A stretch of 64,000 nucleotides of DNA, taken from positions 62,001 through 126,000 of the forward strand of contig NZ_JAAQTL010000001.1 in assembly GCF_011742875.1 (NCBI RefSeq), written 5' to 3'. The notes beneath the pieces are model-generated. The model did no database searches. It was given only the letters and a program-made list of their open reading frames with translations, and was not told the origin of the DNA. Every line of letters starts with the position of its first letter. The stretch's first letter is position 1. A program made the translations under genes and the position numbers. This document shows positions 14,635 through 37,814 of this stretch, in pieces. The DNA comes from Luteibacter yeojuensis. Lineage in GTDB: Bacteria; Pseudomonadota; Gammaproteobacteria; Xanthomonadales; Rhodanobacteraceae.

Positions 14635-15414
14635 TCAGACCATCGCCGCCCCGGGCGCACCATGCGACAGCTCCCGCGACACATCCCCAGCCGCGGCCAT
14701 CAGCAACCGTGCCGTCTCCCTCATGTCGATCTTCGCCCCGCGCCGTTCGATGAACGGCACGGTGAGCGCGCACACCGCATGGTTTCCCTCGATGATCGGC
14801 GCCGACAGATCGGTCACGCCATCGACGACTTCGCTGGGAATCGTCGCAAGGCCCGCCTCGCGGATCTCCTTGATCGACGCCTCGACCCGCGCGCGCTTCA
14901 GCGTCGGCTCGTGCTCCAGCATCGTGCGGAACCAGCGATCCCGGGTTTCCTCGGTCTGCCAAGCGAGCAATACATAACCGGAGGCCGAATGCGAAATGGG
15001 CCGGCGGTGTCCGACACGCACTACAAGACCCGTTTCGCCCGGCGGATCGACGCGCGCGATCACCACGATCTGTTCCTGCGACGGCACCACCAGATGACAG
15101 GACTGGTCGATGTCCTCGGCCAGCCGGTGCATCACCGGCATCGCCGTTTCGACGAGGTTCCGCACCGGCGGCTGTTCCATGCCGAGACGGAACAGGCGCG
15201 GCGTGATCGAGTAGGCGCCGTCGCCGTCGGCGCGAGCGATGTAATCGCGCTCTTCCAGTACCTGGAGCATCCGGAAGATCTCGCCGCGGGAGCGGCCGAC
15301 GCCGTCGGAGATCTCGGCGATGGACAGGGGCTGGGTCGCCTTGGCGAGCAGTTCCAGAATGTCGAGGCCCTTATCGAGGGCGGGGGCGCGATACTTCGGC
15401 GAATCGGAGGACAT
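14635..15414 (-). CDS. IclR-family transcriptional regulator of the L-fucose genes (predicted)
   Basis: A 259-residue IclR protein. The winged HTH lies at about residues 10-75 (LDKGLDILELLAKATQPLSIAEISDGVGRS) and the ligand-binding IclR effector domain at about 85-250 (VVIARVDPPGETGLVVRVG; HSASGYVLLAW; GVTDLSAPIIEG). IclR regulators are usually controlled by a small acid or sugar acid. It is divergent from fucP and shares a 151-bp promoter region with it, so control of fucP and its own gene is the obvious prediction. A sugar acid such as L-fuconate or 2-keto-3-deoxy-L-fuconate would be a sensible effector (inference). The exact 20-bp element at 15474 and 23547 is a candidate binding site. Confidence 0.9.
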   Translation of the reverse strand: MSSDSPKYRAPALDKGLDILELLAKATQPLSIAEISDGVGRSRGEIFRMLQVLEERDYIARADGDGAYSITPRLFRLGMEQPPVRNLVETAMPVMHRLAEDIDQSCHLVVPSQEQIVVIARVDPPGETGLVVRVGHRRPISHSASGYVLLAWQTEETRDRWFRTMLEHEPTLKRARVEASIKEIREAGLATIPSEVVDGVTDLSAPIIEGNHAVCALTVPFIERRGAKIDMRETARLLMAAAGDVSRELSHGAPGAAMV

Positions 15415-15473: not shown

Positions 15474-15493
15474 TCATGTTGCACCGCAGCTTG
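15474..15493 (+). promoter_or_regulatory. 20-bp candidate operator upstream of fucP
   Basis: TCATGTTGCACCGCAGCTTG occurs here and again, without a single mismatch, at 23547-23566 before the TonB-receptor gene. Here its last three bases are the start of the proposed fucP -35 hexamer (TTGTTA). It contains a small dyad, TGC-ACC-GCA. The regulator is not proven; the adjacent IclR protein is the best candidate. Confidence 0.6.
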
Positions 15494-15520
15494 TTATGCT
15501 GGTGAATATTGAGTTCATAT
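15491..15520 (+). promoter_or_regulatory. Possible fucP promoter
   Basis: TTGTTA (15491-15496) is followed after 17-18 bp by TTCATAT (15514-15520), a weak sigma-70-like pair. Its register is the same relative to the 20-bp element as that of the better-formed TonB-receptor promoter. The match is weak on its own. Confidence 0.3.
15493..15511 (-). promoter_or_regulatory. Degenerate copy of the second shared motif (CAAxTTCACC type)
   Basis: Read on the minus strand, CAATATTCACCAGCATAAC resembles the motif at 23503-23521 and 37636-37654 (CAAnTTCACCnnTAAACG) if two one-base gaps are allowed. It lies inside the proposed fucP promoter spacer. Support is weak alone and rests on the other two copies. 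Confidence 0.25.
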
Positions 15521-15565
15521 TTGTACACGTCGGGGCGCGCCGTGTCACGGTGGAGGAGGGCAAGC

Positions 15566-16864
15566 ATGCAGCAACACACGCCGATCGCGGCGCCGGCCAC
15601 GCGCGCCCTCGCGCGTACTCCCCTGATTCCCCTGGTGCTGATCGTAAGCCTGTTCTTCCTCTGGGGCGTGGCGAACAACCTCAACGACGTGCTGGTTGCG
15701 CAGTTCAAGAAGGCCTTTACGCTTTCCGATCTTCAGGCGGGCCTCGTCCAGAGCGCCTTCTACCTTGGCTATTTCCTGCTCGCCATTCCCGCCGGCATCT
15801 TCATGCGCCGCTTCGGGTACAAGGCTGCGGTGGTCTTCGGTCTTCTTCTCTATGGCGCGGGCGCCTTGCTGTTCTGGCCGGCGGCGGCTACGGCGACGTA
15901 TGCCACCTTCCTGCTCGGGCTCTTCGTGATCGCGGCGGGGTTGGCCTTCCTGGAGACCTCGGCCAATCCATGGGTCACGCTGCTGGGTCCGCGCGAATCG
16001 GCGGCGTCGCGCCTGAACCTCGCGCAGGCCTTCAACCCGCTCGGTTCCATCACCGGCGTGCTCATCGGCCAGCATTTCATCTTCACCGGGGTGGAGCGCA
16101 CGCCGGCCGAACTGGCGGGCATGGACGCCATGGCGCGCACCGCCTATATGAAGAGCGAAGCCGCCGCCGTGCAGATGCCTTACCTGGCGATAGGCCTCGG
16201 CGTGATCGCCTGGGCCGTCATCATCGTCGCGACGCGCTTTCCGCGCACAGCGGCCGAAGACGATGGCAGCGACGCCGCGGAACGCGGTGTGCTGGGTCGC
16301 CTGCCACGCGACGGCCGTTTCATGTCCGCGGTGCTCGCGCAGTTCTTCTATGTGGGCGCGCAGGTCGCCATCTTCAGTTACATGATCCGCTACGCGCAGG
16401 CGACGATGCCGGGCACGGCGGACAAGACCGCCGCCAATTTCATTACCGCCGGGTTGCTCTGCTTCATGGCCGGCCGATTCGCCGGTGCCGCGCTCATGAA
16501 ATACCTGCGTCCCGCCCGGGTGCTTGGCACGTTCGCCCTCGTGAACGTCGCGCTGGCGGCGACGGCTGCGATCGTGCCGGGAAGCGTCGGCATCTACGCG
16601 CTGGTGGCTTCGAGCTTCTTCATGTCGATCATGTATCCGACCATTTTCGCGCTGGGGGTCGAAGGACGGAGCGATGCCGAACGCAAGCTCGGTGCCTCGC
16701 TCCTGGTGATGTCGATCGTGGGCGGCGCGGTGATTACCGCAGCGATGGGCGCGACGTCGGACCGTTTCGGCATCGCCCATGCCATGTTGCTGCCGATGTC
16801 GTGTTTCGTCGCGATCTCCCTCTTTGCGTGGCGCCGATCCGGGGGCGGGGAGGCCGTCGCATGA
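15566..16864 (+). CDS. fucP: L-fucose:H+ symporter, MFS family
   Basis: A 432-residue inner-membrane sugar permease with about twelve hydrophobic helices and the FucP/GluP signature: FFLWGVANNLNDVLV in helix 1, FLETSANPWVTLLGP in helix 4 and LNLAQAFNPLGS in helix 5. The last two are typical of the FHS (fucose-galactose-glucose:H+) subfamily. Galactose or glucose could also be carried, but the mutarotase, regulator and oxidative fucose operon next door favour L-fucose. ATG at 15566 has a strong Shine-Dalgarno (GGAGGAGGG); an in-frame start 19 codons earlier does not. The stop overlaps the mutarotase start by 4 bp. Confidence 0.9.
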   Translation: MQQHTPIAAPATRALARTPLIPLVLIVSLFFLWGVANNLNDVLVAQFKKAFTLSDLQAGLVQSAFYLGYFLLAIPAGIFMRRFGYKAAVVFGLLLYGAGALLFWPAAATATYATFLLGLFVIAAGLAFLETSANPWVTLLGPRESAASRLNLAQAFNPLGSITGVLIGQHFIFTGVERTPAELAGMDAMARTAYMKSEAAAVQMPYLAIGLGVIAWAVIIVATRFPRTAAEDDGSDAAERGVLGRLPRDGRFMSAVLAQFFYVGAQVAIFSYMIRYAQATMPGTADKTAANFITAGLLCFMAGRFAGAALMKYLRPARVLGTFALVNVALAATAAIVPGSVGIYALVASSFFMSIMYPTIFALGVEGRSDAERKLGASLLVMSIVGGAVITAAMGATSDRFGIAHAMLLPMSCFVAISLFAWRRSGGGEAVA

Positions 16865-17217
16865 GCTGGCAGTGCCTGGCGCTCGATCTTCGCGACGATC
16901 CCGCGGCCATCGCCGAGTACGAGCGCTGGCATCGCAATGAATTCATCTGGCCGGAAGTGGTGCGTTCGATCCGCGAGGCGGGCATCCTCGACATGCAGAT
17001 CTTCCGCACCGCCAACCGGCTCGTGATGCTGATGCGTGTGGGGCCGGCGTTCGATGCCGGTGCCAAGGCGAAAGCAGATGCGGCGAACGAGCGTGTGCAG
17101 GCGTGGGAAGCCTTGATGTCTCGCTTCCAGCAGCCCTTGCCGTGGGCAGAGGCAGGGCAGAAGTGGGTGCCGATGCAAAGGATTTTCGACCTGGCCGACG
17201 TACCGTCCGCATTGTAG
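16861..17217 (+). CDS. L-fucose/L-rhamnose mutarotase family protein
   Basis: A 118-residue protein of the RhaM/RhaU (L-rhamnose mutarotase) family, recognised by its small single-domain size and the WPEVVRSIREAGILDMQIF and LVMLMRV strands of a dimeric alpha/beta ferredoxin-like barrel. Such enzymes interconvert alpha and beta anomers of 6-deoxyhexoses. The X. campestris fucose pathway includes a mutarotase of this kind that supplies the anomer used by L-fucose dehydrogenase. It is translationally coupled to fucP. Its stop codon TAG is the TAG inside the GTAGGAG edge of a REP repeat, so a repeat has landed exactly at the gene's end. Confidence 0.85.
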   Translation: MSWQCLALDLRDDPAAIAEYERWHRNEFIWPEVVRSIREAGILDMQIFRTANRLVMLMRVGPAFDAGAKAKADAANERVQAWEALMSRFQQPLPWAEAGQKWVPMQRIFDLADVPSAL

Positions 17218-17289
17218 GAGCCGCTATGGCGGCGAGAGCACTCTTGCGAGTACGTCGCGAGATTTCCTCGCCGCTATAGCGCCTCCTAC
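17214..17289. repeat. REP-type inverted repeat pair, class A, overlapping a stop codon
   Basis: The left edge GTAGGAGCCGCTATGGCGGC provides the mutarotase stop codon at 17215-17217. The right arm is slightly degenerate (CTATAGCGCCTCCTAC). Confidence 0.82.
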
Positions 17290-17493
17290 AGAAAAGCGGG
17301 CCCGTTGTGGGAGCCGGTTTTGCCGGCGATCCAGCAGCAGCGGGCAACCTTGCCGCAAGCACCCATCGCCGCTGAAGCGGCTCCCACACAGAGCCTGGCA
17401 GTTCATCGTAGGGGGAGTGTGGGTAGCGCGCTGGTGCGCGGAGGGATTACGGCCTGGCCGTACACGCGCCAGCGCGCTCCCCACAGCAAACGG
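17218..17493. other. Repeat-only gap between two convergent operons
   Basis: The 276 bp between the mutarotase and lldD-like stop codons hold no gene. They contain most of a class A REP pair, a class B pair and an imperfect inverted repeat (17419-17437 against 17465-17484, GTGGGTAGCGCGCTGGTGCG type). Three unrelated hairpins in tandem would act as a bidirectional transcription barrier. Confidence 0.7.
17307..17387. repeat. REP-type inverted repeat pair, class B
   Basis: Left arm GTGGGAGCCGGTTTTGCCGGCGAT (core changed to GCCGG-TTTT-GCCGGC) and right arm the normal class B inverse ending GCTCCCAC. The two arms have diverged but each keeps its own stem. Confidence 0.8.
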
Positions 17494-18636
17494 TCATCCC
17501 TTCCACAGGATGTCTCGCGACACGCGGGTGGCATCCAGCGCGCCGGTGAGGGCCATCGATACGCTCAGTTCCTTGCGGATGAGTTCGATGGCCTGGGTGA
17601 CGCCGGCTTCGCCGTTGGCGCCGAGGCCATAGAGGAAGGCCTTGCCGATGAGGCCGGCGCGGGCGCCGAGGGCGAGTGCCTTGAGCAGGTCCTGACCGCT
17701 GGCGATACCGCTATCGAACAGCACCTCGGTGCCGCCGGCCACTGCATCGACGATGTAGGGCAGCACATCGATGCTGGCCGGCGCACCGTCGAGCTGGCGG
17801 CCGCCATGGTTGGACACCACGATGGCATCCACGCCATGGGCCACGGCCAGCTTTGCATCCTCGGGATCAAGGATGCCCTTGAGGATAAGCTTCCCGGGCC
17901 ATAGCTCGCGAATCCATGCCAGGTCGTCCCAGGTGATGGTCGGATCGAACTGTGCGGCGATCCACTGCGCGAGCGTGGTCAGGCTGTCCGCGCCCTTGAT
18001 GTGGCCGTCGAGGTTGCCGAAGGAACGGCTTGGCGCGCGCAGCACGTTCCACACCCAGCGCGGTTTGCTGGCGATGTCGAACAGGTTTCGCAGCGTGAGC
18101 TTCGGGGGAACCGAGAGTCCGTTCTTGATCTCGCGGTGCCGCTGCCCCTGCACGGTGAGGTCTGCGGTGACCATCAATGCGGAACACTCCGCCGCACGCG
18201 CACGCTGGATGAGCTCCCGGGAAAATCCCCTGTCGCGCATCACGTACACCTGGAACCAGAACGGTACGTCGGTGCCGGCGCGCACCTGTTCGATCGAGCA
18301 GATCGACACGGTGCTGAGGCAGAATGGAATGCCTGCCTTCGCGGCGGCGCGCGCGCCGTGGATCTCGCCGCTGCCGTATTGCAGCCCCGCCATGCCGGTG
18401 GGCGCGATCGCCAGCGGCATGCTCAGCGGCTGCCCGACCACGGTCGTGGCGAGCGAGCGGCGGTCCACGTTCCGCATCACGCGCTGGCGGAAGCGCAGGC
18501 GTTCGAAGGCGCGGCGGTTTTCCCGCAATGTCACTTCGTCGTACGAGCCGCGGTCGGCGTATTCGAAGAAGGCACGCGGTACGCGGCGCCGCGCGAGTTC
18601 GCGCAGGTCGGCGACGTTCGTGACCGGCGTGGCCAT
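17494..18636 (-). CDS. lldD: FMN-dependent L-lactate dehydrogenase / alpha-hydroxyacid oxidase
   Basis: A 380-residue flavoprotein of the LldD/glycolate-oxidase family. Visible are PLAIAPTGMAGLQY (FMN site), the FWFQVYVMRDR strand, the active-site stretch VVSNHGGRQLDG with the catalytic His, and DSGIASGQDLLKALALGA (FMN phosphate). The family oxidises L-lactate to pyruvate with transfer to the quinone pool. It starts 4 bp after the fucD stop and ends the operon. The last fucose-pathway hydrolase yields pyruvate plus L-lactate, so an L-lactate dehydrogenase here would close the pathway to pyruvate only. The lactate assignment draws on this context; other 2-hydroxyacids are possible. Confidence 0.85.
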   Translation of the reverse strand: MATPVTNVADLRELARRRVPRAFFEYADRGSYDEVTLRENRRAFERLRFRQRVMRNVDRRSLATTVVGQPLSMPLAIAPTGMAGLQYGSGEIHGARAAAKAGIPFCLSTVSICSIEQVRAGTDVPFWFQVYVMRDRGFSRELIQRARAAECSALMVTADLTVQGQRHREIKNGLSVPPKLTLRNLFDIASKPRWVWNVLRAPSRSFGNLDGHIKGADSLTTLAQWIAAQFDPTITWDDLAWIRELWPGKLILKGILDPEDAKLAVAHGVDAIVVSNHGGRQLDGAPASIDVLPYIVDAVAGGTEVLFDSGIASGQDLLKALALGARAGLIGKAFLYGLGANGEAGVTQAIELIRKELSVSMALTGALDATRVSRDILWKG

Positions 18637-18640
18637 GACG

Positions 18641-19960
18641 TCAGCGGTCCGCCGCCATGGCCACGCCCTGCCAGACGATGCCGTCGGGATACAGGTGATC
18701 GCGTATCGACGCCGGATGCATCTGCGCCGAGAAGCCGGGCGCGGTGGGTGCCACGTAGCGGCCCTTCACGATGCGCACCGGATCGACGAAGTGCTCGTGC
18801 AGATGGTCCACGAATTCGATGGCGCGGTCTTCCTTCTTGCCCGTGATGGCGACGAAATCGGCCATGGCGAGGTGCTGCACCAGTTCGCACAGGCCCACGC
18901 CTCCCGCATGTGGAAAGACGCGCACGCCGAAGTGCGCCGCAAGCAGCAGGATGGCCAGGTTTTCGTTCACGCCGCCGACGCGCGCGGCGTCGATCTGGAT
19001 CAGGTCCACGGCGCCGGCCTGCAGCAGCTGCTTGAACAGCACGCGGTTCTGGCCGTGCTCGCCGGTGGAGATGGGCGTGGGCGCGACGGCGCGGCGGATA
19101 GCCGCGTGGCCGAGCACATCGTCAGGGCTCGTCGGTTCTTCCACCCATGCGAGGCCGACGCTCTCCAACGGCTTCAGCCACTCGATCGCACTCCCCACGT
19201 CCCAGCGCTGGTTCGCGTCCACGGCGATGGCGATGTCGGGGCCTACCGTGGCGCGGGCGAGCCGGCACCGGCGGATGTCGTCTTCGAGGTGCAGGCCGAC
19301 CTTGAGCTTGATGGTGCGGAAGCCGTCGTCGACAGCCTGGCGGGCGAGGCGCTGCATCTTCTCGTCGGTGTAGCCCAGCCAGCCGGGGGAGGTGGTGTAG
19401 GCGGGGTAGCCTTCCGCCTCCAGTTGGGCGATACGCAGCTTCTTGTGCGGTTCCGCCGCGCGCAGGATCTCCAGTGCGCGGTGGGGCGTCAGCGCGTCGG
19501 TGAGGTAGCGGAAGTCGACCTGGTCGACGATCTGTTCCGGCGTCATGTCGGCGATGAATCGCCATAGCGGCTTCCCGGCGCGCCGCGCCGCGAGATCCCA
19601 GGCGGCGTTGATTACCGCGCCGATGGCCATGTGCATCACCCCCTTTTCGGGGCCGAGCCAGCGCAGCTGCGAGTCGCCGTTGAGCTGGCGCGCGAAGTCG
19701 CCCAGGCGCTCGACGATATCCTCCACGCGCCGGCCGATCACCCTCGGCTCGAGCGCGGCAAGCGCCGCCGTCTGCACGTCGTTTCCGCGTCCGATCGTGA
19801 ACACGAGCCCGTAGCCGGACAGGCCGTCGGGACTGTCCGTGCGCATCACCACATAGGCCGCCGAGTAATCCGGGTCCGGGTTCATCGCATCGGAACCGTC
19901 GTGGTCGATCGAGGTGGGAAAGCGGACGTCGAACGTGTCCAGCGCGGTGATCGTCACCAT
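18641..19960 (-). CDS. fucD: L-fuconate dehydratase (enolase superfamily)
   Basis: This enzyme removes water from L-fuconate to give 2-keto-3-deoxy-L-fuconate. The 439-residue protein keeps all known active-site residues of X. campestris FucD, at the same numbers: Lys218 and Lys220 (TIKLKVG), metal ligands Asp248, Glu274 and Glu301, and base His351 (FPHAGG). The ATG at 19960 gives [17 protein letters not shown], the family opening; the open frame runs upstream without homology. It overlaps the preceding hydrolase gene by 7 bp and is followed 4 bp later by the lldD-like gene, so all are on one mRNA. Confidence 0.96.
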
Positions 19961-20814
19961 GCGTTGCGGTCTCCATAGGCCACGACATCCTGGCGTTGTC
20001 TTCCCAGTCCCTCGATGCCCAGTTCGATCACGTCGCCCGGCTTGAGGTAGGTGGGCGGCTTCAACCCGAGGCCGACGCCGGCGGGCGTGCCCGTGCTGAT
20101 GACGTCGCCCGGCATCAGGGTCATGTAGCGACTGATGTAGCTGACCAGCTGCGCCACGCCGAACACCATCGTTCGCGTGTTGCCGTTCTGGTAGCGATGC
20201 CCGTTCACTTCGAGCCAGAGGGAAAGGTCCTGCGGGTCGGCCACTTCGTCGCGCGTGACCAGCCAGGGGCCGATCGGGCCGAAGGTATCGCAGCTCTTGC
20301 CCTTCACCCACTGGCCGCCGTGCTCGAGCTGGAAGGCGCGCTCGGACAGGTCGTTGATCACGGCGTAGCCGGCCACGTGTTTCAGGGCCGCTTCCACCGG
20401 TACATGGCGCGTCACTTCGCCGATGATCACTCCCAGTTCCACTTCCCAGTCGGTCTTCACCGAATCGAGCGGAATCACCACGGTGTCGTTGGGGCCGCCG
20501 ATGGCCGTCGTGGCCTTCATGAACAGCACGGGCTGTTCGGGCACCGGCGCGCCGGTTTCCGCGGCATGGTCGGCGTAGTTCATGCCGACGCAGATCATCT
20601 TGCCGATGCCAGCCACGGGAGCGCCGTAGCGCGGCGTTCCCGCGACGAGGGGGAGCGTGGCGGGATCGATCGCGGCGAGGCGGCGCAGGCCTTCATTGCC
20701 GATGACATCGCCGGAGAGATCTGGCACGACGCCGGAGAGATCGCGCAGGCGGCCTTCGCCGTCGATGAGTCCAGGCTTCTCCTGGCCAGGGGCGCCGTAG
20801 CGGGCGAGTTTCAT
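19954..20814 (-). CDS. 2,4-diketo-3-deoxy-L-fuconate hydrolase (fumarylacetoacetate hydrolase family)
   Basis: A 286-residue FAH-superfamily enzyme: [15 protein letters not shown] (start of the fold), then [12 protein letters not shown] with metal-ligand glutamates, [17 protein letters not shown] and [19 protein letters not shown]. In the X. campestris-type pathway this enzyme cleaves 2,4-diketo-3-deoxy-L-fuconate to pyruvate and L-lactate. The FAH family alone would allow many substrates; the assignment rests on its position between the SDR and fucD genes. The ATG at 20814 is the start of homology. There is an 11-bp gap to the SDR gene and a 7-bp overlap with fucD. Confidence 0.9.
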
Positions 20815-20825
20815 CGCATGCGTCC

Positions 20826-21596
20826 TCAGTTCGACCAGCCGCCGTCCACGACGTGGACGGTGCCGGTGGTAAACGACGATTCCTCGGAGGCCAGATAGAC
20901 GGCCAGCGCGGCGATTTCGCGCGGATCGCCGAGGCGGCCCATCGGCTGGCGCTCGGTGAATCCACGCCACACGGCTTCCTCGTCACCGCCCATGGCGCGC
21001 ACGCGGTCGGCGAGCGACGGCGTTTTCACCGTGCCGGGACAGATGGCGTTGCAGCGCACGCCGCGCGCCACGACATCGGCGGCGATGGACCGGGTGAGAC
21101 CGATCACCGCGGCCTTGGTGGCTCCGTAGGCGAAGCGGTTGGGCACGCCCTTGATGCTCGACGCCACCGAGGACATGTTCACGATGCTGCCGGTGCCGCG
21201 CTCCAGCATGCCGGGGAGCACCGCGCGGCAGGTATGGAACATGCTGTCCACGTTGATGGCGAAGGATCGGCGCCAGCTCGCCTCGTCCGTGTCGAGGATG
21301 GTGCCCGCATGCACGTATCCCGCGCAGTTGAAGAGGATGTCGACGACGCCGGCTTCCGCGACGAGGGCGGCGATCGCTTCGGGGTCGGTCACATCCAGCA
21401 TGCGCGTCGTCACCGAAGGCTGTTCGGCGGCCAGCGAGGCGAGGCTGGCAGGGTCGATGTCGGTCGCCAGCACCGCCGCGCCTTCGGCGGCGAAGGCCAG
21501 CGCCGTGGCACGGCCGATACCTGCGCCGGCCGCGGTGACAAGGGCCCGCTTGCCTGCGAGACGGCCGCTCGCGCGCGGAACGGGTTGTGGCGTCAT
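20826..21596 (-). CDS. 2-keto-3-deoxy-L-fuconate dehydrogenase (SDR family)
   Basis: A 256-residue short-chain dehydrogenase that oxidises the C4 hydroxyl of 2-keto-3-deoxy-L-fuconate with NAD+. The Rossmann motif reads [10 protein letters not shown] (residues 21-30), where TGxxxGIG is usual. Catalytic Ser143 (NMSS), Tyr157 and Lys161 (YGATK) are present, and ATDIDP indicates an NAD-type acidic residue after strand 2. The ATG at 21596 overlaps the lactonase stop by 4 bp. Substrate is inferred from operon context and similarity to the X. campestris pathway. Confidence 0.92.
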
Positions 21597-22423
21597 GAAG
21601 GAATCCTCGGAAGGGAATAGACGGAGCATGCGTTGCCGCCGAACACGGCGGCTTCCGCCGCGGGCGCGTGGCGAAGGACGAGGTCGCGTGCGCAGGTTTT
21701 CCACGCGCCGTAGCTGGCGTGCGTGGTGAGCACCGGCCAATCGCTGCCCCAGATCAGGCGGTTCGCGCCGAAGGTCTCGAACAGATGCGCGACATATGGC
21801 TCGAGGGTCGAGGCCTCCGCCCCGTTTCCGGTGAGCGTGAGCAGGCCGGAGAGCTTGCAGTACACATCGGGCATCTGCGCGAGCCGTGCGATCGATGTGG
21901 CCCATTCGGCGAAGCTGCCGCCGGCGATGTCCGGCTTCGCGGCATGGTCGATCACCGTGTGCAGCCCCGGGTGCCTGGCCAGGCGCTCGGAAAGCGCGCG
22001 CAGGTGACGCTCGTCGACCAGCGCATCGAAGACCAGTCCGCGGTCGCGTATATGTTCGAAGGCGATGTCGAGCGATGGCGACGCCAGCCATTGCGTATCC
22101 GGAATGTCCTGCACCATCGGGCGGATGCCGCACAGCAGGCCGCCACCGTCCGCGACGAGCCAGTCCAGGCGCGAAGCGACGTCGAGCGCTTGCATGTCGA
22201 CCCACCCGACGACGCCGAGGACGCCCGGGTACCGGCGGGCCAGTTCGAAGAGGAAGCGCGTTTCGCGTTCGTCCGGCGCGGCCTGCACGAGGATGCATGG
22301 ATCGGGGGCGCCCACGAGATCCTCGGGAAGAAAAGCGCGACGCAGCGCATGGGGCGCGGCGGCCAGCCAGTCGTACTTGAGCCGCGCAGGGTCCCAGTAG
22401 TGACGGTGGGCGTCGACGATCAT
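21593..22423 (-). CDS. L-fuconolactonase (amidohydrolase family)
   Basis: A 276-residue metal-dependent hydrolase of the amidohydrolase_2 type that opens L-fucono-lactone to L-fuconate. The motif MIVDAHRHYWDP at the N-terminus carries the first two metal-site histidines; VIDHAAKP and IWGSDWPVLT hold the later His and Asp. The family also contains L-rhamnono- and other sugar lactonases, so the substrate comes from context. The gene overlaps both neighbours by 4 bp (TCAT), which ties it translationally to the dehydrogenase genes on either side. Confidence 0.92.
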   Translation of the reverse strand: MIVDAHRHYWDPARLKYDWLAAAPHALRRAFLPEDLVGAPDPCILVQAAPDERETRFLFELARRYPGVLGVVGWVDMQALDVASRLDWLVADGGGLLCGIRPMVQDIPDTQWLASPSLDIAFEHIRDRGLVFDALVDERHLRALSERLARHPGLHTVIDHAAKPDIAGGSFAEWATSIARLAQMPDVYCKLSGLLTLTGNGAEASTLEPYVAHLFETFGANRLIWGSDWPVLTTHASYGAWKTCARDLVLRHAPAAEAAVFGGNACSVYSLPRIPS

Positions 22424-23445
22424 GGCGTGGGCACCGTCGGATCGATCAGGCCTTCCTCCCGCAGCGCGGTCCAGGTGGCGGCAGGCACGGTCGCGCACCG
22501 GCGATGCATCGCCGCTTCCACCTCGGCCGTCGAGCGCAGTCCGCAAACCACGGCGGACACGGCGGGGTGGGCGAGTGGGAACTGCAAGGCGGCCGCGCCG
22601 ACCTCCGCGCCGGTACGGCGGCAGACATCGTAGTAGCGCCGCGCGCGTGCGAGTACCTCGGCCGACGCGGGGGCGTAGTCGTAAGTGGAACCGGGACCAT
22701 CCGCGCTACCCAGCAGCCCGGAGTTGTACGGCCCGGCGACGAGCACCGAGACGCCGTTCGCGGCCGCCCGCTCCATCACGGCCTTGCTCGCCCCCTGTTC
22801 GAACAGGGTGTAACGGCCCGCGAGCATGATGGCGTCGAGCGGAAAGCGCGGCATCACCTCGAGGCATATCGCTTCCTCGTTCACGCCGATGCCGATGGCG
22901 CCGACGAGGCCTTCGTCGCGCATGCGCGCCATCTCGGGCAATGCGTCGTCCAGCGCCTGAGTCAGTACCCGCGGATGACGGTCTCCGTGGGTGAGGGCAC
23001 CGATGTCGTGCAGGAAGAGGATGTCGATGTATTCGACGCGCAGCCGGCGAAGGCTGGCTTCGAGGCTGCGTCGCACGCCGGCGCGGCTGTAATCGAAGCG
23101 GGCGGCGCGATCGTCCACGGCGAAGCCGTCGTCCCGGCCGCGATGGCCGGTGGCGTCCTCGACGATCCGGCCCACCTTCGTCGACAGCGTATAGCTCGCG
23201 CGCGGCAGGCGGGCCAGCGCATCGCCGATGCGCGTCTCGCTGAGGCCAAATCCGTAGTAGGGCGCCGTGTCGTAGTGGCGGATGCCGCGCTCCCATGCGA
23301 GCCGGATGGCGTTTTCCGCCTCGGCTCCGTGCACCGCGCTGTAGAGATTGCCGACCGGCGCGCCGCCGAACGCCAACGACGAGAGCGGGCCTGGCTTTCG
23401 CCCTTGCGGTGTGACTGGCAACTGGCCGGCATTCGGCGGCGACAT
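22420..23445 (-). CDS. Aldo/keto reductase, predicted L-fucose dehydrogenase
   Basis: A 341-residue AKR of the D-threo-aldose/L-fucose dehydrogenase group, the first gene of the fucose operon. It oxidises the C1 of L-fucose to L-fucono-lactone. The AKR tetrad is visible: Asp in HYDTAPYYGFGLSE and the following Tyr, Lys in LSTKVGR and His in FLHDIGA. The C-terminal cofactor segment is AVVCGLRSTAEVEAA. The open frame continues upstream far beneath the TonB-receptor gene, but homology and composition begin at the ATG at 23445, just downstream of a plausible promoter. All six genes from here to the lldD-like gene overlap or nearly touch. Confidence 0.9.
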   Translation of the reverse strand: MSPPNAGQLPVTPQGRKPGPLSSLAFGGAPVGNLYSAVHGAEAENAIRLAWERGIRHYDTAPYYGFGLSETRIGDALARLPRASYTLSTKVGRIVEDATGHRGRDDGFAVDDRAARFDYSRAGVRRSLEASLRRLRVEYIDILFLHDIGALTHGDRHPRVLTQALDDALPEMARMRDEGLVGAIGIGVNEEAICLEVMPRFPLDAIMLAGRYTLFEQGASKAVMERAAANGVSVLVAGPYNSGLLGSADGPGSTYDYAPASAEVLARARRYYDVCRRTGAEVGAAALQFPLAHPAVSAVVCGLRSTAEVEAAMHRRCATVPAATWTALREEGLIDPTVPTP

Positions 23446-23502
23446 CGAGGCTCCCCAGGCTGCGCCACACGTCGCGTGCGGCACTGAACAGATATGGATA
23501 TT

Positions 23503-23521
23503 ACGTTTATAGGTGAACTTG
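23503..23521 (-). promoter_or_regulatory. Second shared motif, copy at the fucose operon promoter
   Basis: On the minus strand CAAGTTCACCTATAAACGT; it matches CAATTTCACCAGTAAACGT at 37636-37654 in 16 of 19 positions. Both copies lie upstream of minus-strand operons of the same island and overlap the predicted -10 region. It may be an operator or simply an alike core promoter. Confidence 0.45.
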
Positions 23522-23532
23522 TCCAGCGTCAA
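23504..23532 (-). promoter_or_regulatory. Promoter of the L-fucose catabolic operon
   Basis: On the minus strand TTGACG (23532-23527), 17 bp, then TAAACG (23509-23504); TATAAA with a 15-bp spacer overlaps it. The ATG is about 60 bp downstream. Confidence 0.5.
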
Positions 23533-23546
23533 GGCGAGGTTTTTCA

Positions 23547-23566
23547 TCATGTTGCACCGCAGCTTG
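23547..23566 (+). promoter_or_regulatory. 20-bp candidate operator upstream of the TonB-receptor gene
   Basis: Exact second copy of TCATGTTGCACCGCAGCTTG (first at 15474). Its last three bases form the start of the receptor gene's -35 box (TTGAAA), and it lies about 15 bp upstream of the divergent fucose operon -35. A protein bound here could affect both directions. Confidence 0.62.
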
Positions 23567-23592
23567 AAACGCTGAAAACATATCTGAATACT
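23564..23592 (+). promoter_or_regulatory. Promoter of the TonB receptor-GH29-GH18 unit
   Basis: TTGAAA (23564-23569), 17-bp spacer, AATACT (23587-23592): a good sigma-70-type pair abutting the 20-bp element. Confidence 0.5.
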
Positions 23593-23793
23593 CAGTTCGC
23601 CAGTGAACGGGTGCCGGAAACGCGCACTCGAGCGGGGCGAGCCGGTCGGCGAGGGGTCGACCGCCGTCCCTGCACGGATCGCCAAAGTGCCCCGCGCCGC
23701 TGCCAACGGCGCGGTTTTCATACACGCCAAGCATGCGCCGCCCCGACGGGGTCGGGTGCGTGCATCCGGAACCAAGGTTTGGGGAGACCATTC

Positions 23794-26493
23794 ATGACGA
23801 TCAGCAAGACCTTGCTGTGCGCGAGCATCCTGTATGCGCTCGCCGCGGTGGCCCAGGCGCAGGACGCGGCGCCCGCCCAGGCGGACAAACCGAAGACGGC
23901 GCAGCAGAAGGCCGCCGAGAAGCAGGTCCAGGAACTGCAGGAGGTGACCGTCACCGGTTATCGCGGCAGTCTCGAGAAGGCCATCGACATCAAGCGCAAC
24001 GCCAATGCCGTTGTCGACGCGATCAGCGCCACCGACATTGGCAAGTTTCCCGACACCAACGCCGCGGAGTCGCTGTCCCACCTGCCGGGCATCACCGTGG
24101 ATCGCCAGTTCGGCGAGGGCGAGAAGATCAGCGTCAACGGCACCGACGCCGCGCTCAACCGCGTGCTGCTCAACGGCCAGACCATCGCCTCGGGCGACTG
24201 GGGCGGCAATCCCACCGATACCAGCGGCCGCACCTTCAACTACTCGCTGCTCTCTCCCGAGATCATCGGCCGCATGGAGGTCTACAAGTCGCCCGAGGCC
24301 CGCATCGACGAGGGCAGCATCGGCGGCACCGTCATCATCCACACGCGCAAGCCGCTGGACCTCCCGGCGAACACGCTGCGCGGCTCGCTCGGCTACAACT
24401 ACAACGACCGCTCGAAGGAAGGAAATCCGCGTGGCTCCGCGCTGTGGAGCTGGAAGAACGCGGACAGCACGTTCGGCTTCCTGACCAGCGTCACCCACGA
24501 CAAGGAAGACCTGTCCCGCGCCGGCATCGAATTCTTCGGATATACCACTGGCGCGAACATCACGGGCCATCCCAACGTCACGGGCGATCCGAACTACGCC
24601 AACGCAAAGATCCCGGTCGGCATCAACAGTGCGTACTTCCAGCAAGAGCGCGAGCGCAACGGCATCCAGTCGGCGTTGCAATGGCGCCCGGACGAGAAGA
24701 ACGAGTTCAACCTGACCGGCCTGTACGTCAAGGGCAAATACAACAATTTCAGCGAGTCGCGCTATGTCTGTCCGGGCTGCGGCGACCTCAACAAGCTGAC
24801 CGACATCAACGTCAACAACGGCTACATCACCTCGGGCACGGTGTCGTCCACCACTGGCAACGGGCAGCCCTATGCCGAACTGGACGCGAATTACCGGAAG
24901 ACCGAGGTTTCCACCAAGAGCATCAACCTCCGCCACGACTTCAACGGCGATGCGTGGGTGTTCACGAGCCAGGTGGGCTATACCAGCGCCAGCGGCGGCA
25001 AGGACCCCGAATACCTCATGAAGTACCTGCTGAAGAACGGCGGGTACGACTTCGGTTACGACGGCCGCAACACCAGCGTGAACTACCAGAACGGCTCGGC
25101 CGCCAACTGGGGGCTGCCGGGTTCGCCGGCGGGTTCGCCCCCGGGCGACACGTCGCTGCCGGGCCAGAACCAGGCGGGCGGCATCTATTACGAAACCACG
25201 AAGGATCGCGAGCGCTACGCGCAGTTCGATGCGTCCCGCGACGTGGAGTGGGGCCCCATCAAGCAGGTGCAGATGGGCGTGAAGTACACCAACCACTTCA
25301 ACGGCACGAATTCGCGCGGCAACCGAATCAACACCACCGATCCGGTGTCGCTGCTGGACTTCGATCCGGGCAGCACGCCGGGTGGCCTGTTCGACGGCCT
25401 GCACGCCGGCGGCGACCTCACCGATTGGCCGACGGCAAGCAAGGGTGCCGTGGTTTCCTACCTGAACGCGCAGCCGCAGGGCCCGTACACGCTGAATTAC
25501 CCGTCGATGTTCGGCGTGGCGGAGGTCACGAAGGACGCCTATCTCCAGGTGAACTACGAGTCCGGCAAGTGGCGCGGGAACGTGGGCGTGCGCTACGTGG
25601 ACACGAAGGACACGTCGACCTATTACGTGAGCAGCGACAACATCCCCGGCACCTATAACCGGACGACGACCACCACGCACTATTACAAGCCGCTGCCGAC
25701 CTTCAACTTGGCCTACGATCTCGACGAGGACAAGGTGCTGCGCATGTCCGTCGCCAAGGTGATCGCGCGGCCGCGCTACGGCGACCTGGCCGGCGCCACC
25801 TCCCTCAGTGGCGCGAGCACGGGCAACTTCACGGCCAGCGCGGGCAACCCGGACCTGAAGCCTTACCAGTCCACCAACTTCGACGTCTCGGCGGAATGGT
25901 ACTTCGCGCCGGCAAGCCTCTTGTCGCTCGAAGGTTTCGTCCGCAAGATCGACAGCTACATCGTCACCACCACGTCCGAGCGCTCGATCACCGATCCGAC
26001 CACCGGCCAGACCAACCTCTACTCGGTCACTTCGCCGGTGAACGCGTCGAACGCCAAGGTCTCCGGTCTTTCGCTGATCTACCAGCAGGATCTCGGCCTG
26101 GGCTTCGGCATCCAGACGAATTACACCTACAGCAAGGCGACCACGCAGACCAATGCGGCCGGCGACAAGCTCAACCTGCCGTACCTGTCGAAGAACACCA
26201 TCAACATCATCCCGTACTACGAGCATGGCCCATGGTCGGCACGCATCAACTACAGCCGCCGCTCGCCGTACTTCACCCAGGTGGGGCGCCTGAACTCGAA
26301 CGTGTTCGCCGACGCATACAAGGAACTGGACCTCAGCGCCTCGTACCAGATCACGCCGTGGGCCGGCATCACCCTCAGCGCCACCAACCTGCTGGATTCG
26401 ACGTACTACCAGTACGCCGACATCAAGTACGCTCCGATCGGCGAGTACAAGAGTGGCCGGACGTACTCGGTCACGATGAACTTCAAGCTTTAA
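23794..26493 (+). CDS. TonB-dependent outer-membrane receptor for glycan import
   Basis: An 899-residue outer-membrane transporter of the Xanthomonas/Caulobacter TonB-receptor type. Signal peptide is at residues 1-22 (MTISKTLLCASILYALAAVAQA), then a spacer and the TonB-box region (ELQEVTVTGYR). The plug domain follows to about residue 190 (ISATDIGKFPDTNAAESLSHLPGI; VLLNGQTIAS), and then the beta-barrel ending YSVTMNFKL. Receptors of this class beside glycosidases import oligosaccharides. With GH29 and GH18 genes directly downstream and the fucose operon divergent, the likely cargo is a fucosylated oligosaccharide. The start at 23794 opens the signal peptide; the frame is open 100 codons earlier without homology. 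Confidence 0.93.
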   Translation: MTISKTLLCASILYALAAVAQAQDAAPAQADKPKTAQQKAAEKQVQELQEVTVTGYRGSLEKAIDIKRNANAVVDAISATDIGKFPDTNAAESLSHLPGITVDRQFGEGEKISVNGTDAALNRVLLNGQTIASGDWGGNPTDTSGRTFNYSLLSPEIIGRMEVYKSPEARIDEGSIGGTVIIHTRKPLDLPANTLRGSLGYNYNDRSKEGNPRGSALWSWKNADSTFGFLTSVTHDKEDLSRAGIEFFGYTTGANITGHPNVTGDPNYANAKIPVGINSAYFQQERERNGIQSALQWRPDEKNEFNLTGLYVKGKYNNFSESRYVCPGCGDLNKLTDINVNNGYITSGTVSSTTGNGQPYAELDANYRKTEVSTKSINLRHDFNGDAWVFTSQVGYTSASGGKDPEYLMKYLLKNGGYDFGYDGRNTSVNYQNGSAANWGLPGSPAGSPPGDTSLPGQNQAGGIYYETTKDRERYAQFDASRDVEWGPIKQVQMGVKYTNHFNGTNSRGNRINTTDPVSLLDFDPGSTPGGLFDGLHAGGDLTDWPTASKGAVVSYLNAQPQGPYTLNYPSMFGVAEVTKDAYLQVNYESGKWRGNVGVRYVDTKDTSTYYVSSDNIPGTYNRTTTTTHYYKPLPTFNLAYDLDEDKVLRMSVAKVIARPRYGDLAGATSLSGASTGNFTASAGNPDLKPYQSTNFDVSAEWYFAPASLLSLEGFVRKIDSYIVTTTSERSITDPTTGQTNLYSVTSPVNASNAKVSGLSLIYQQDLGLGFGIQTNYTYSKATTQTNAAGDKLNLPYLSKNTINIIPYYEHGPWSARINYSRRSPYFTQVGRLNSNVFADAYKELDLSASYQITPWAGITLSATNLLDSTYYQYADIKYAPIGEYKSGRTYSVTMNFKL

Positions 26494-37514: not shown

Positions 37515-37814
37515 CGAAACTCCCATCACTGGAACGTGTACCGCGGATCGCATCGCGCGGGGACGAACGCGTCTCATCGAGCGCTAAAGCGGGTCGAGTC
37601 TTTCCCACGTATGACAGTGTGTCAATATGAATACGACGTTTACTGGTGAAATTGAGTAAAGATCATAGTTGATTCCGCCTGATTTCGTCATCTGGATGTC
37701 GCTCTAAGGTTGCGCAACTTCCTGCCGATGACGTGCCTGAAGAGTCGGGCCGCGGCACTCGAGATGGAAGCGCATTGAAATTGAAGCTCCCCCTTTTGAA
37801 TCATTGAGCTAGCG
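37515..37814. other. Divergent intergenic region before the GH20 operon
   Basis: 300 bp without a gene; the base composition drops from G+C-rich to A+T-rich around 37615. It holds a perfect 13-bp palindrome TGACA-GTG-TGTCA (37612-37624), the second shared motif (37636-37654) and a 10-bp palindrome GTTGCGCAAC (37709-37718). The last resembles the TTGC..GCA heart of the 20-bp fucose element, but the match is loose. Confidence 0.6.
37636..37654 (-). promoter_or_regulatory. Second shared motif, copy before the GH20 operon
   Basis: On the minus strand CAATTTCACCAGTAAACGT, matching 16 of 19 positions of the copy at 23503-23521. The nearby CTGGTGAA..ATTGAG string (plus strand, 37643-37656) also occurs with one extra base at 15499-15513 before fucP. 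The start codon is about 120 bp downstream. Confidence 0.45.

What the first reader, a model, noticed from the sequence alone, without database searches (positions are those of the whole stretch)
15474..23566. Exact 20-bp element at two fucose-island promoters, abutting the -35 box each time
TCATGTTGCACCGCAGCTTG occurs at 15474-15493 (fucP) and 23547-23566 (TonB receptor) without mismatch. In both cases its final TTG is the first half of a -35 hexamer. An exact 20-mer in two noncoding regions 8 kb apart in G+C-rich DNA is far beyond chance and indicates a shared operator. The divergent IclR gene is the natural candidate regulator. Such a site touching the -35 could be repression or class II activation.
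Basis: partly seen in the sequence, partly recalled or inferred. Interest (0 to 1): 0.75.

Follow-up and report, generated by a model that had tools for sequence, protein, structure and literature searches.

The report
Storage-sensor box at fucose-uptake promoters
The repeated 20-letter DNA element is real and conserved, but it is most likely the docking site of PhaR, a protein that senses the carbon-storage polymer PHB, rather than of the neighbouring fucose regulator, which would tie sugar uptake to the cell's carbon reserves.

Summary
In detail: TCATGTTGCACCGCAGCTTG stands at 15474-15493 (fucP) and 23547-23566 (TonB receptor), far beyond chance. With up to 3 mismatches the genome (nearest named relatives: Luteibacter) has two more copies, both before TonB receptors, one shared with a divergent GH95 fucosidase gene. 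The element is a 17-bp odd palindrome ending in the -35, conserved before fucose and galactose uptake genes in several genera.

The proposed regulator is not supported. Twelve of 37 element-bearing genomes lack the IclR; 24 of 24 Xanthomonas loci keep IclR and fucP without the element there. IclR has its own candidate three-box operator beside each copy.

The best match is the published palindrome of PhaR (AniA), the PHB-sensing regulator: both sites fit 21 of 21 positions, and no other place in the window does. The genome encodes PhaR, and in two other genomes the element precedes a PHB-depolymerase-family esterase gene. Binding is untested; repression (favoured) or activation is open. If true, PHB status and sugar-specific repressors jointly control glycan uptake: a new regulon for a known regulator.

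The parts
15474..15494 (+). PhaR-type palindromic box at fucP (20-mer plus one base; palindrome core 15476-15492); its TTG starts the -35
   Evidence: fits WNWDDNYGCRNYGCRNHHWNW 21 of 21
23547..23567 (+). PhaR-type palindromic box between the fucose catabolic operon (-) and the TonB receptor (+)
15503..15526 (+). candidate IclR three-box operator over the fucP spacer and -10
   Evidence: TGAAY-N5-GTTCR-N4-TGMAC, 1 mismatch; conserved in relatives
23585..23608 (+). candidate IclR three-box operator over the -10 of the TonB-receptor promoter
   Evidence: 0 mismatches
23495..23518 (+). candidate IclR three-box operator over the -10 of the catabolic-operon promoter
   Evidence: 2 mismatches; overlaps TAATAT 23503-23498
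37628..37651 (+). candidate IclR three-box operator upstream of the GH20-GH3-GH35-GH29 genes (no -10 assigned)
   Evidence: 2 mismatches; gene order
15491..15521 (+). putative fucP promoter: TTGTTA, 19-bp spacer, CATATT
   Evidence: sequence; below the scanner's threshold
23564..23592 (+). putative TonB-receptor promoter: TTGAAA, 17 bp, AATACT
23498..23525 (-). putative fucose catabolic-operon promoter: TGGACA, 16 bp, TAATAT
14635..15414 (-). IclR-family regulator of the fucose island
   Evidence: PF09339, PF01614
15566..16864 (+). fucP, L-fucose:H+ symporter
   Evidence: TIGR00885 above cut-off
16861..17217 (+). rhaM-type mutarotase
   Evidence: PF05336
17494..23448 (-). fucose catabolic genes: FMN dehydrogenase, enolase-superfamily dehydratase, FAA hydrolase, SDR, amidohydrolase, aldo/keto reductase
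23794..26493 (+). TonB-dependent receptor (TBDR1)
   Evidence: PF00593, PF07715
26563..28179 (+). GH29 alpha-L-fucosidase
   Evidence: PF01120
29311..37514 (-). GH20-GH3-GH35-GH29 genes (read from the 37514 end)

Best explanation
The 20-mer is a binding site (box) for PhaR (AniA), the regulator that senses the storage polymer PHB. A PhaR dimer would sit on the 17-bp palindrome at about -42, overlapping the first bases of the -35, and keep fucP and the TonB receptor (perhaps also the divergent catabolic operon) down until PHB granules titrate it away. Separately, the divergent IclR binds a three-box site over the -10 and releases it when the fucose pathway's inducer is present. The same PhaR-type box works with other local repressors at galactose genes. 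Shown: the element, its palindrome, its spread, the motif match, a PhaR gene in the genome, dissociation from IclR. Inferred: binding by PhaR, promoter use, the sign of regulation (repression about 60:40 over activation), PHB as the signal here.
For: The S. meliloti PhaR palindrome WNWDDNYGCRNYGCRNHHWNW, taken from PMC12542648, fits both sites at 21 of 21 positions and has no other exact place in the window (2 matches, 0.26 +- 0.48 expected). In 543,802 bases of the genome it matches at 3 places, all element sites (fucP, TBDR1, GH95|TBDR3), against 0 for a complement-type control. The genome encodes PhaR with PF07879 and PF05233, 59% identical to a plasmid-borne Pseudomonas PhaR over 107 residues. 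Two of 17 order-level element sites, found before PhaR was considered, lie upstream of a PHB-depolymerase-family esterase gene (PF10503; L341, L347). A PhaR-repressed S. meliloti gene, ppa, has TCATGTTGCATCGCGGCATGT 39 nt from its start site, 18 of 21 letters the same as the fucP site by eye. Xanthomonas, a genus with phaR (X. oryzae and others, PMC6304360), has the element before the fucose catabolic operon in 20 of 21 loci; the commonest form equals two EMSA-bound S. meliloti sites at 18 of 21 letters.
Against: No binding or expression data. PhaR presence was shown only in this genome and, from a paper, in Xanthomonas; the capped searches could not test it in Dyella or the other genera. No exact PhaR box beside a PHB gene was seen in the 544 kb scanned here. 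Allowing 1 mismatch, the published motif is no more frequent in the window than chance (5 against 5.05). Two further element sites of this genome (TBDR4, galM) miss the AT-rich arms (no exact match in L005 or L140), and the Xanthomonas catabolic-operon regions fit the published 21-mer only at 1 (5), 2 (15) or 3 (1) mismatches of 21 loci, where 2 is common in shuffles. The steady place at about -42 would also suit an activator.
Confidence: 0.72

Rival explanations
1. The 20-mer is the operator of the divergent IclR.
For: IclR is divergent from fucP and both copies lie in the fucose island; of 30 IclR loci examined (65 genomes of the family have an IclR), 29 have the element, at 3 or fewer mismatches, before fucP.
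Against: 12 of 37 element genomes have no IclR; 0 of 24 Xanthomonas IclR-fucP promoters have the element; no IclR-type boxes in the 20-mer, while a conserved three-box site lies beside it.
Confidence: 0.05
2. Another, unidentified activator or repressor with a PhaR-like motif binds the element (a LysR, XRE or second IclR-type protein).
For: The element pairs with several unrelated local regulators, and odd palindromes are known in other families (recalled).
Against: The independent PhaR motif picks exactly these sites in the window. A dgo-linked LysR was tested and is missing from 20 of 37 element genomes (24 of 233 genomes have it at E up to 1e-60, 10 candidates scored per genome). GntR4 has its own operator, which occurs without the element.
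Confidence: 0.2
3. PhaR binds but activates (class II, centre about -42) rather than represses, so that PHB build-up shuts uptake down.
For: Same place relative to the -35 at unrelated promoters, on both sides of the palindrome at GH95|TBDR3; box-to-three-box distance is 27 in 32 of 38 loci; 47 of 93 sites have a -10-like hexamer 15-19 bp after the -35, 8.0 +- 2.7 in shuffles, most often at a poor 19 bp. In S. meliloti 30% of the genes activated by PhaR in rich medium are transport genes.
Against: S. meliloti genes with boxes 35-47 nt from the start are repressed (phaP1, phaP2, ppa, manX, SMc01834; SMc02374 at 38 is listed as not regulated).
Confidence: 0.3

Closest known systems
PhaR/AniA boxes of Sinorhizobium meliloti (PMC12542648)
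   Same: Palindrome YGCRNYGCR with AT-rich arms; several boxes 35-47 nt from the start site; PF07879 + PF05233 regulator.
   Different: Known targets are PHB, exopolysaccharide and central-carbon genes (plus a weakly bound rha site); here the targets are TonB receptors, fucP, galactosidases and fucosidases, next to local repressor operators.
IclR-family three-box operators (PMC8222616)
   Same: Three boxes of alternating direction, as in the site just downstream of each 20-mer.
   Different: This describes the neighbouring site, not the 20-mer.
DgoR (GntR/FadR) operators of E. coli (PMC12288454)
   Same: AATTGTAGTA half-sites near the -10 at galactose promoters that also carry the element.
   Different: A separate site; similar sites occur without the element upstream of GntR4 genes.

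Membership tests
PhaR (AniA) binding site | Palindrome WNWDDNYGCRNYGCRNHHWNW | tested here: met
   21 of 21 at both window sites; not met exactly at TBDR4 and galM
PhaR (AniA) binding site | PhaR encoded in the same genome | tested here: met
   G000:C1:645091-645591, PF07879 and PF05233
PhaR (AniA) binding site | PhaR present in all genomes that carry the element | not tested
PhaR (AniA) binding site | Boxes also at phasin or PHB depolymerase genes | tested here: inconclusive
   none among the 3 exact places in 543,802 of 4,221,433 bases of this genome; in two other genomes of the order the element lies upstream of an Esterase_PHB (PF10503) gene
PhaR (AniA) binding site | Direct binding, relieved by PHB | not testable with these tools
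   -
IclR operator | TGRAACAN1-2TGTTYCA or GKTYCRYW3-4RYGRAMC boxes in the 20-mer | tested here: not met
   by inspection against PMC8222616; a separate three-box site is present
IclR operator | Element co-occurs with the IclR | tested here: not met
   12 of 37 element genomes lack it; 0 of 24 Xanthomonas fucP promoters carry the element
GntR/DgoR operator | GT...AC palindrome (TTTGTNNTACAAA) | tested here: not met
   absent from the 20-mer; such sites (up to 1 mismatch) occur in 9 of 12 GntR4 loci, none of which has the element at 2 or fewer mismatches
dgo-linked LysR operator | LysR present wherever the element is | tested here: not met
   LysR in 17 of 37 element genomes

The most novel reading that the evidence does not exclude
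Across Lysobacterales, PhaR is a storage-status master input on glycan import: one PhaR box at the -35 is placed before TonB receptors, sugar permeases and fucosidases or galactosidases, and paired with a different sugar-specific repressor at the -10 (IclR for fucose, DgoR-like GntR for galactose, others elsewhere), so that outer-membrane glycan uptake needs both the sugar and the right PHB state.
Probability: 0.45. Interest if true: 0.78.

Novelty: new variant of a known kind. Interest (0 to 1): 0.62.

Why it matters
It would give a direct, DNA-encoded link from an internal carbon-storage polymer to the choice of external glycans eaten, and a testable reason for part of the pleiotropy of a phaR mutant reported in Xanthomonas. 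It also separates two operators that an exact-repeat reading fuses into one, and yields concrete candidate regulons: PhaR (fucP, TBDR1, GH95|TBDR3, and more weakly TBDR4 and galM) and IclR (four sites in the window).

Tried and rejected
IclR as binder: rejected on co-occurrence and motif. GntR4, the DgoR-like galactose regulator: it or its roughly 60% paralog is present in all 37 element genomes (G013 has only the paralog at that level), but its own TTTGTNNTACAAA-like site occurs without the element. LysR beside dgoK, suggested by GamR of Xanthomonas (PMC8245568, passages; also passages of PMC6965072 and PMC7831014): missing from 20 of 37 element genomes; the GamR paper itself is not held (nothing seen). 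A second IclR (IclR2) whose Xanthomonadaceae-like promoter carries the element: no relative above 30% identity among the 3.1 Mb of loci held then, and its promoter shows separate CGAAA/TTTCG boxes by eye. Mobile repeat: rejected. RNA element: no Rfam match; a weak terminator-like stem at 15478-15490 was not pursued. Degenerate copies: pooled matches at up to 3 mismatches are background (174 against 485 for the reversed control). Plasmid similarity search: unhelpful. Element sites in four genomes of one genus (G225, G227, G230, G231) were set aside as chance: unrelated contexts were seen for three and assumed for G231. Of 17 order-level places fetched: 4 before IclR2-MFS-DHDPS, 1 before the fucose operon, 2 before cytochrome/porin genes, 2 before PHB-esterase genes, 8 with no clear sugar or PHB context, three of them inside called genes.
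Full report
Observation. The 20-mer occurs exactly at 15474-15493 and 23547-23566 and nowhere else in the window with up to 3 mismatches (0 expected). In the 4.22-Mb genome up to 3 mismatches gives four places, the two plus C1:735720 (2 mismatches) and C1:216465 (3 mismatches), against 3 for the reversed pattern. The third lies between divergent GH95 and TonB-receptor genes, the fourth between a GntR gene and a TonB receptor. A fifth, weaker copy stands between a second GntR gene and an aldose (galactose-type) epimerase gene. More degenerate copies are background.

Anatomy. Aligned, the sites form a 17-bp odd palindrome, AWGYTGCRNYGCARCWT, whose last two bases begin the -35. At GH95|TBDR3 this holds on both sides: toward GH95 the -35 reads ATGACA, with TAGATT 18 bp on in this genome and 17 bp on in L037 (sequence). 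At the TonB receptor of the window the promoter is TTGAAA-17-AATACT; the catabolic operon on the other strand has TGGACA-16-TAATAT. The fucP promoter is below the scanner's threshold. Over 93 non-redundant sites out of 160 distinct ones, 47 have a -10-like hexamer 15-19 bp after the -35, against 8.0 +- 2.7 in single-base shuffles, most often at 19 bp; spacings of 6, 11, 13, 14 and 32 are enriched too. That set was gathered with a pattern and includes chance sites, so its symmetry is not independent evidence.

Spread. In the genus the element (up to 1 mismatch) is in 14 of 23 genomes, the reversed control in 1; in the family ATGYTGCRNCGCARCTTG is in 41 of 233, against 2 of 233 for the reversed control. 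Named relatives with it before fucP include Luteibacter, Dyella, Rhodanobacter and Fulvimonas. The sites precede fucP, TonB receptors (often followed by GH35 and GH27 genes), GH95, GH27-type and galactose-epimerase genes. Four genomes of one genus were left out as chance, giving 37 (contexts of three seen).

Not IclR. IclR is in 6 of 23 genus and 65 of 233 family genomes; 12 of the 37 element genomes lack it. Of 80 named IclR loci (the best 80 of 143 found), 38 of 56 non-Xanthomonas loci have the element 25-28 bases before the three-box at fucP (27 in 32), and 0 of 24 Xanthomonas loci do. In Xanthomonas the element (2 or fewer mismatches, last bases CKTG allowed) instead precedes the catabolic operon, in 20 of 21 loci where that gene was seen (12 of 43 in the others; reversed control 0 of 64).

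The IclR site. Just downstream of each 20-mer lies TGAAY-N5-GTTCR-N4-TGMAC: 15503-15526 (1 mismatch) and 23585-23608 (0), plus 23495-23518 (2, catabolic operon) and 37628-37651 (2, before the GH20-GH3-GH35-GH29 genes): 4 matches, 0.46 +- 0.74 expected, 1 of 100 shuffles reaching 4. The pattern was built from the first two and relatives, so only the other two test it. It resembles the three-box sites that PMC8222616 describes for IclR proteins (passages). In 71 of 80 loci its second base pair reads G-C 38, A-T 22, mixed 11 times, as paired half-sites would; 20 of the 22 A-T cases are Xanthomonas, so these are sequences, not independent events, and there the site has 3-4 mismatches.

Not GntR4 and not the dgo LysR. 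GntR4 or its close paralog is in all 37 element genomes and heads dgoK-dgoA-dgoD clusters in other genera. Its TTTGTNNTACAAA-like site, close to the E. coli DgoR repeat AATTGTAGTACAA (PMC12288454, passages) and to the GntR consensus (PMC4494728, passages), is present in 9 of 12 loci; none of the 12 has the element at 2 or fewer mismatches, one (L191) has 3-mismatch hits. The LysR beside dgoK is in 24 of 233 genomes and missing from 20 of 37 element genomes, G013 among them.

PhaR. Searching the paper library for four forms of the palindrome gave 2 papers; one is PMC12542648 on PhaR/AniA of S. meliloti (passages and the first part of section 18 read). Its palindrome WNWDDNYGCRNYGCRNHHWNW fits both window sites fully and has no other exact match in the window (2 against 0.26 +- 0.48, 2 of 100 shuffles reaching 2). 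In 543,802 bases of this genome it has 3 exact places, fucP, TBDR1 and GH95|TBDR3. That stretch includes the known loci, so the force of the result is that no other place appeared. With one mismatch the motif is no better than chance. The genome encodes PhaR at C1:645091-645591 with both PHB_acc domains. Two of the 17 order-level element sites, fetched before PhaR was considered, lie between genes 127 and 258 bases upstream of the called start of a PF10503 PHB-depolymerase-family esterase gene, in two genera (L341, L347); no -10 is evident there. Xanthomonas oryzae has phaR, and its deletion is pleiotropic (PMC6304360, abstract and passages). Among IclR-fucP intergenic regions the best match to the published motif has 0 or 1 mismatch in 34 of 56 non-Xanthomonas loci and 0 of 24 Xanthomonas loci (14 of 400 shuffles); upstream of the catabolic operon it is 6 of 43 and 5 of 21.

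Mechanism. PhaR represses most of its motif-bearing S. meliloti targets and is drawn off by PHB granules; repressed genes there have boxes 35-47 nt from the start (phaP1, phaP2, ppa, manX, SMc01834), the same place as here. I therefore favour repression by PhaR at the -35 together with repression by IclR (fucose) or a DgoR-like GntR (galactose) at the -10. Activation at -42 remains open. Neither binding nor sign is shown.

Known or new. In ten library searches I saw no listing that ties PhaR to fucose, galactose or TonB receptors in Lysobacterales. None of the ten paired PhaR by name with these words, and the library holds only open-licence papers, so this is a weak statement; one S. meliloti siderophore receptor (rhtA) is among PhaR-affected proteins. 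Two fucose papers with IclR regulators (PMC12566272, PMC5507952; passages) gave no such site.

Noticed in passing
window 37628-37651: Fourth three-box site, upstream of GH20-GH3-GH35-GH29 genes, suggesting that the IclR also controls a fucosylated-glycan degradation cluster.
   Followed up: partly
window 17214-17480: Extragenic repeat-like stretch with TAGGAGCCGCTATGGCGGCGAG and inverted copies between the mutarotase gene and the FMN dehydrogenase gene.
   Followed up: no
L341 6313-6330, L347 6241-6258: In two order-level genomes the element lies upstream of a PHB-depolymerase-family (PF10503) esterase gene.
   Followed up: partly
L170 4178-4350 and 6512: In another Luteibacter-genus genome, element copies precede a 2-hydroxyacid dehydrogenase/RraA/kinase operon beside a different FCD-GntR, and a lactonase-like gene, each followed by ATCTAAGATATCAGTT.
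   Followed up: partly
L335-L338: In four order-level genomes the element precedes a second IclR-MFS-DHDPS operon, followed by CGAAA/TTTCG boxes.
   Followed up: partly
L339, L344: In two order-level genomes the element lies between a TetR gene and genes for a multiheme cytochrome and an MtrB/PioB porin (domains tested in L344 only).
   Followed up: partly
L167, L178, L201: A further TonB receptor in Luteibacter and Dyella-like genomes has the element and, farther downstream, a three-box-like site such as TGAACATATAGTTCGTATATGCAC.
   Followed up: partly
L174, L183: A similar palindrome without CTTG lies beside a LysR gene near aromatic-pathway-like genes in two genomes; perhaps a different regulator.
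   Followed up: no
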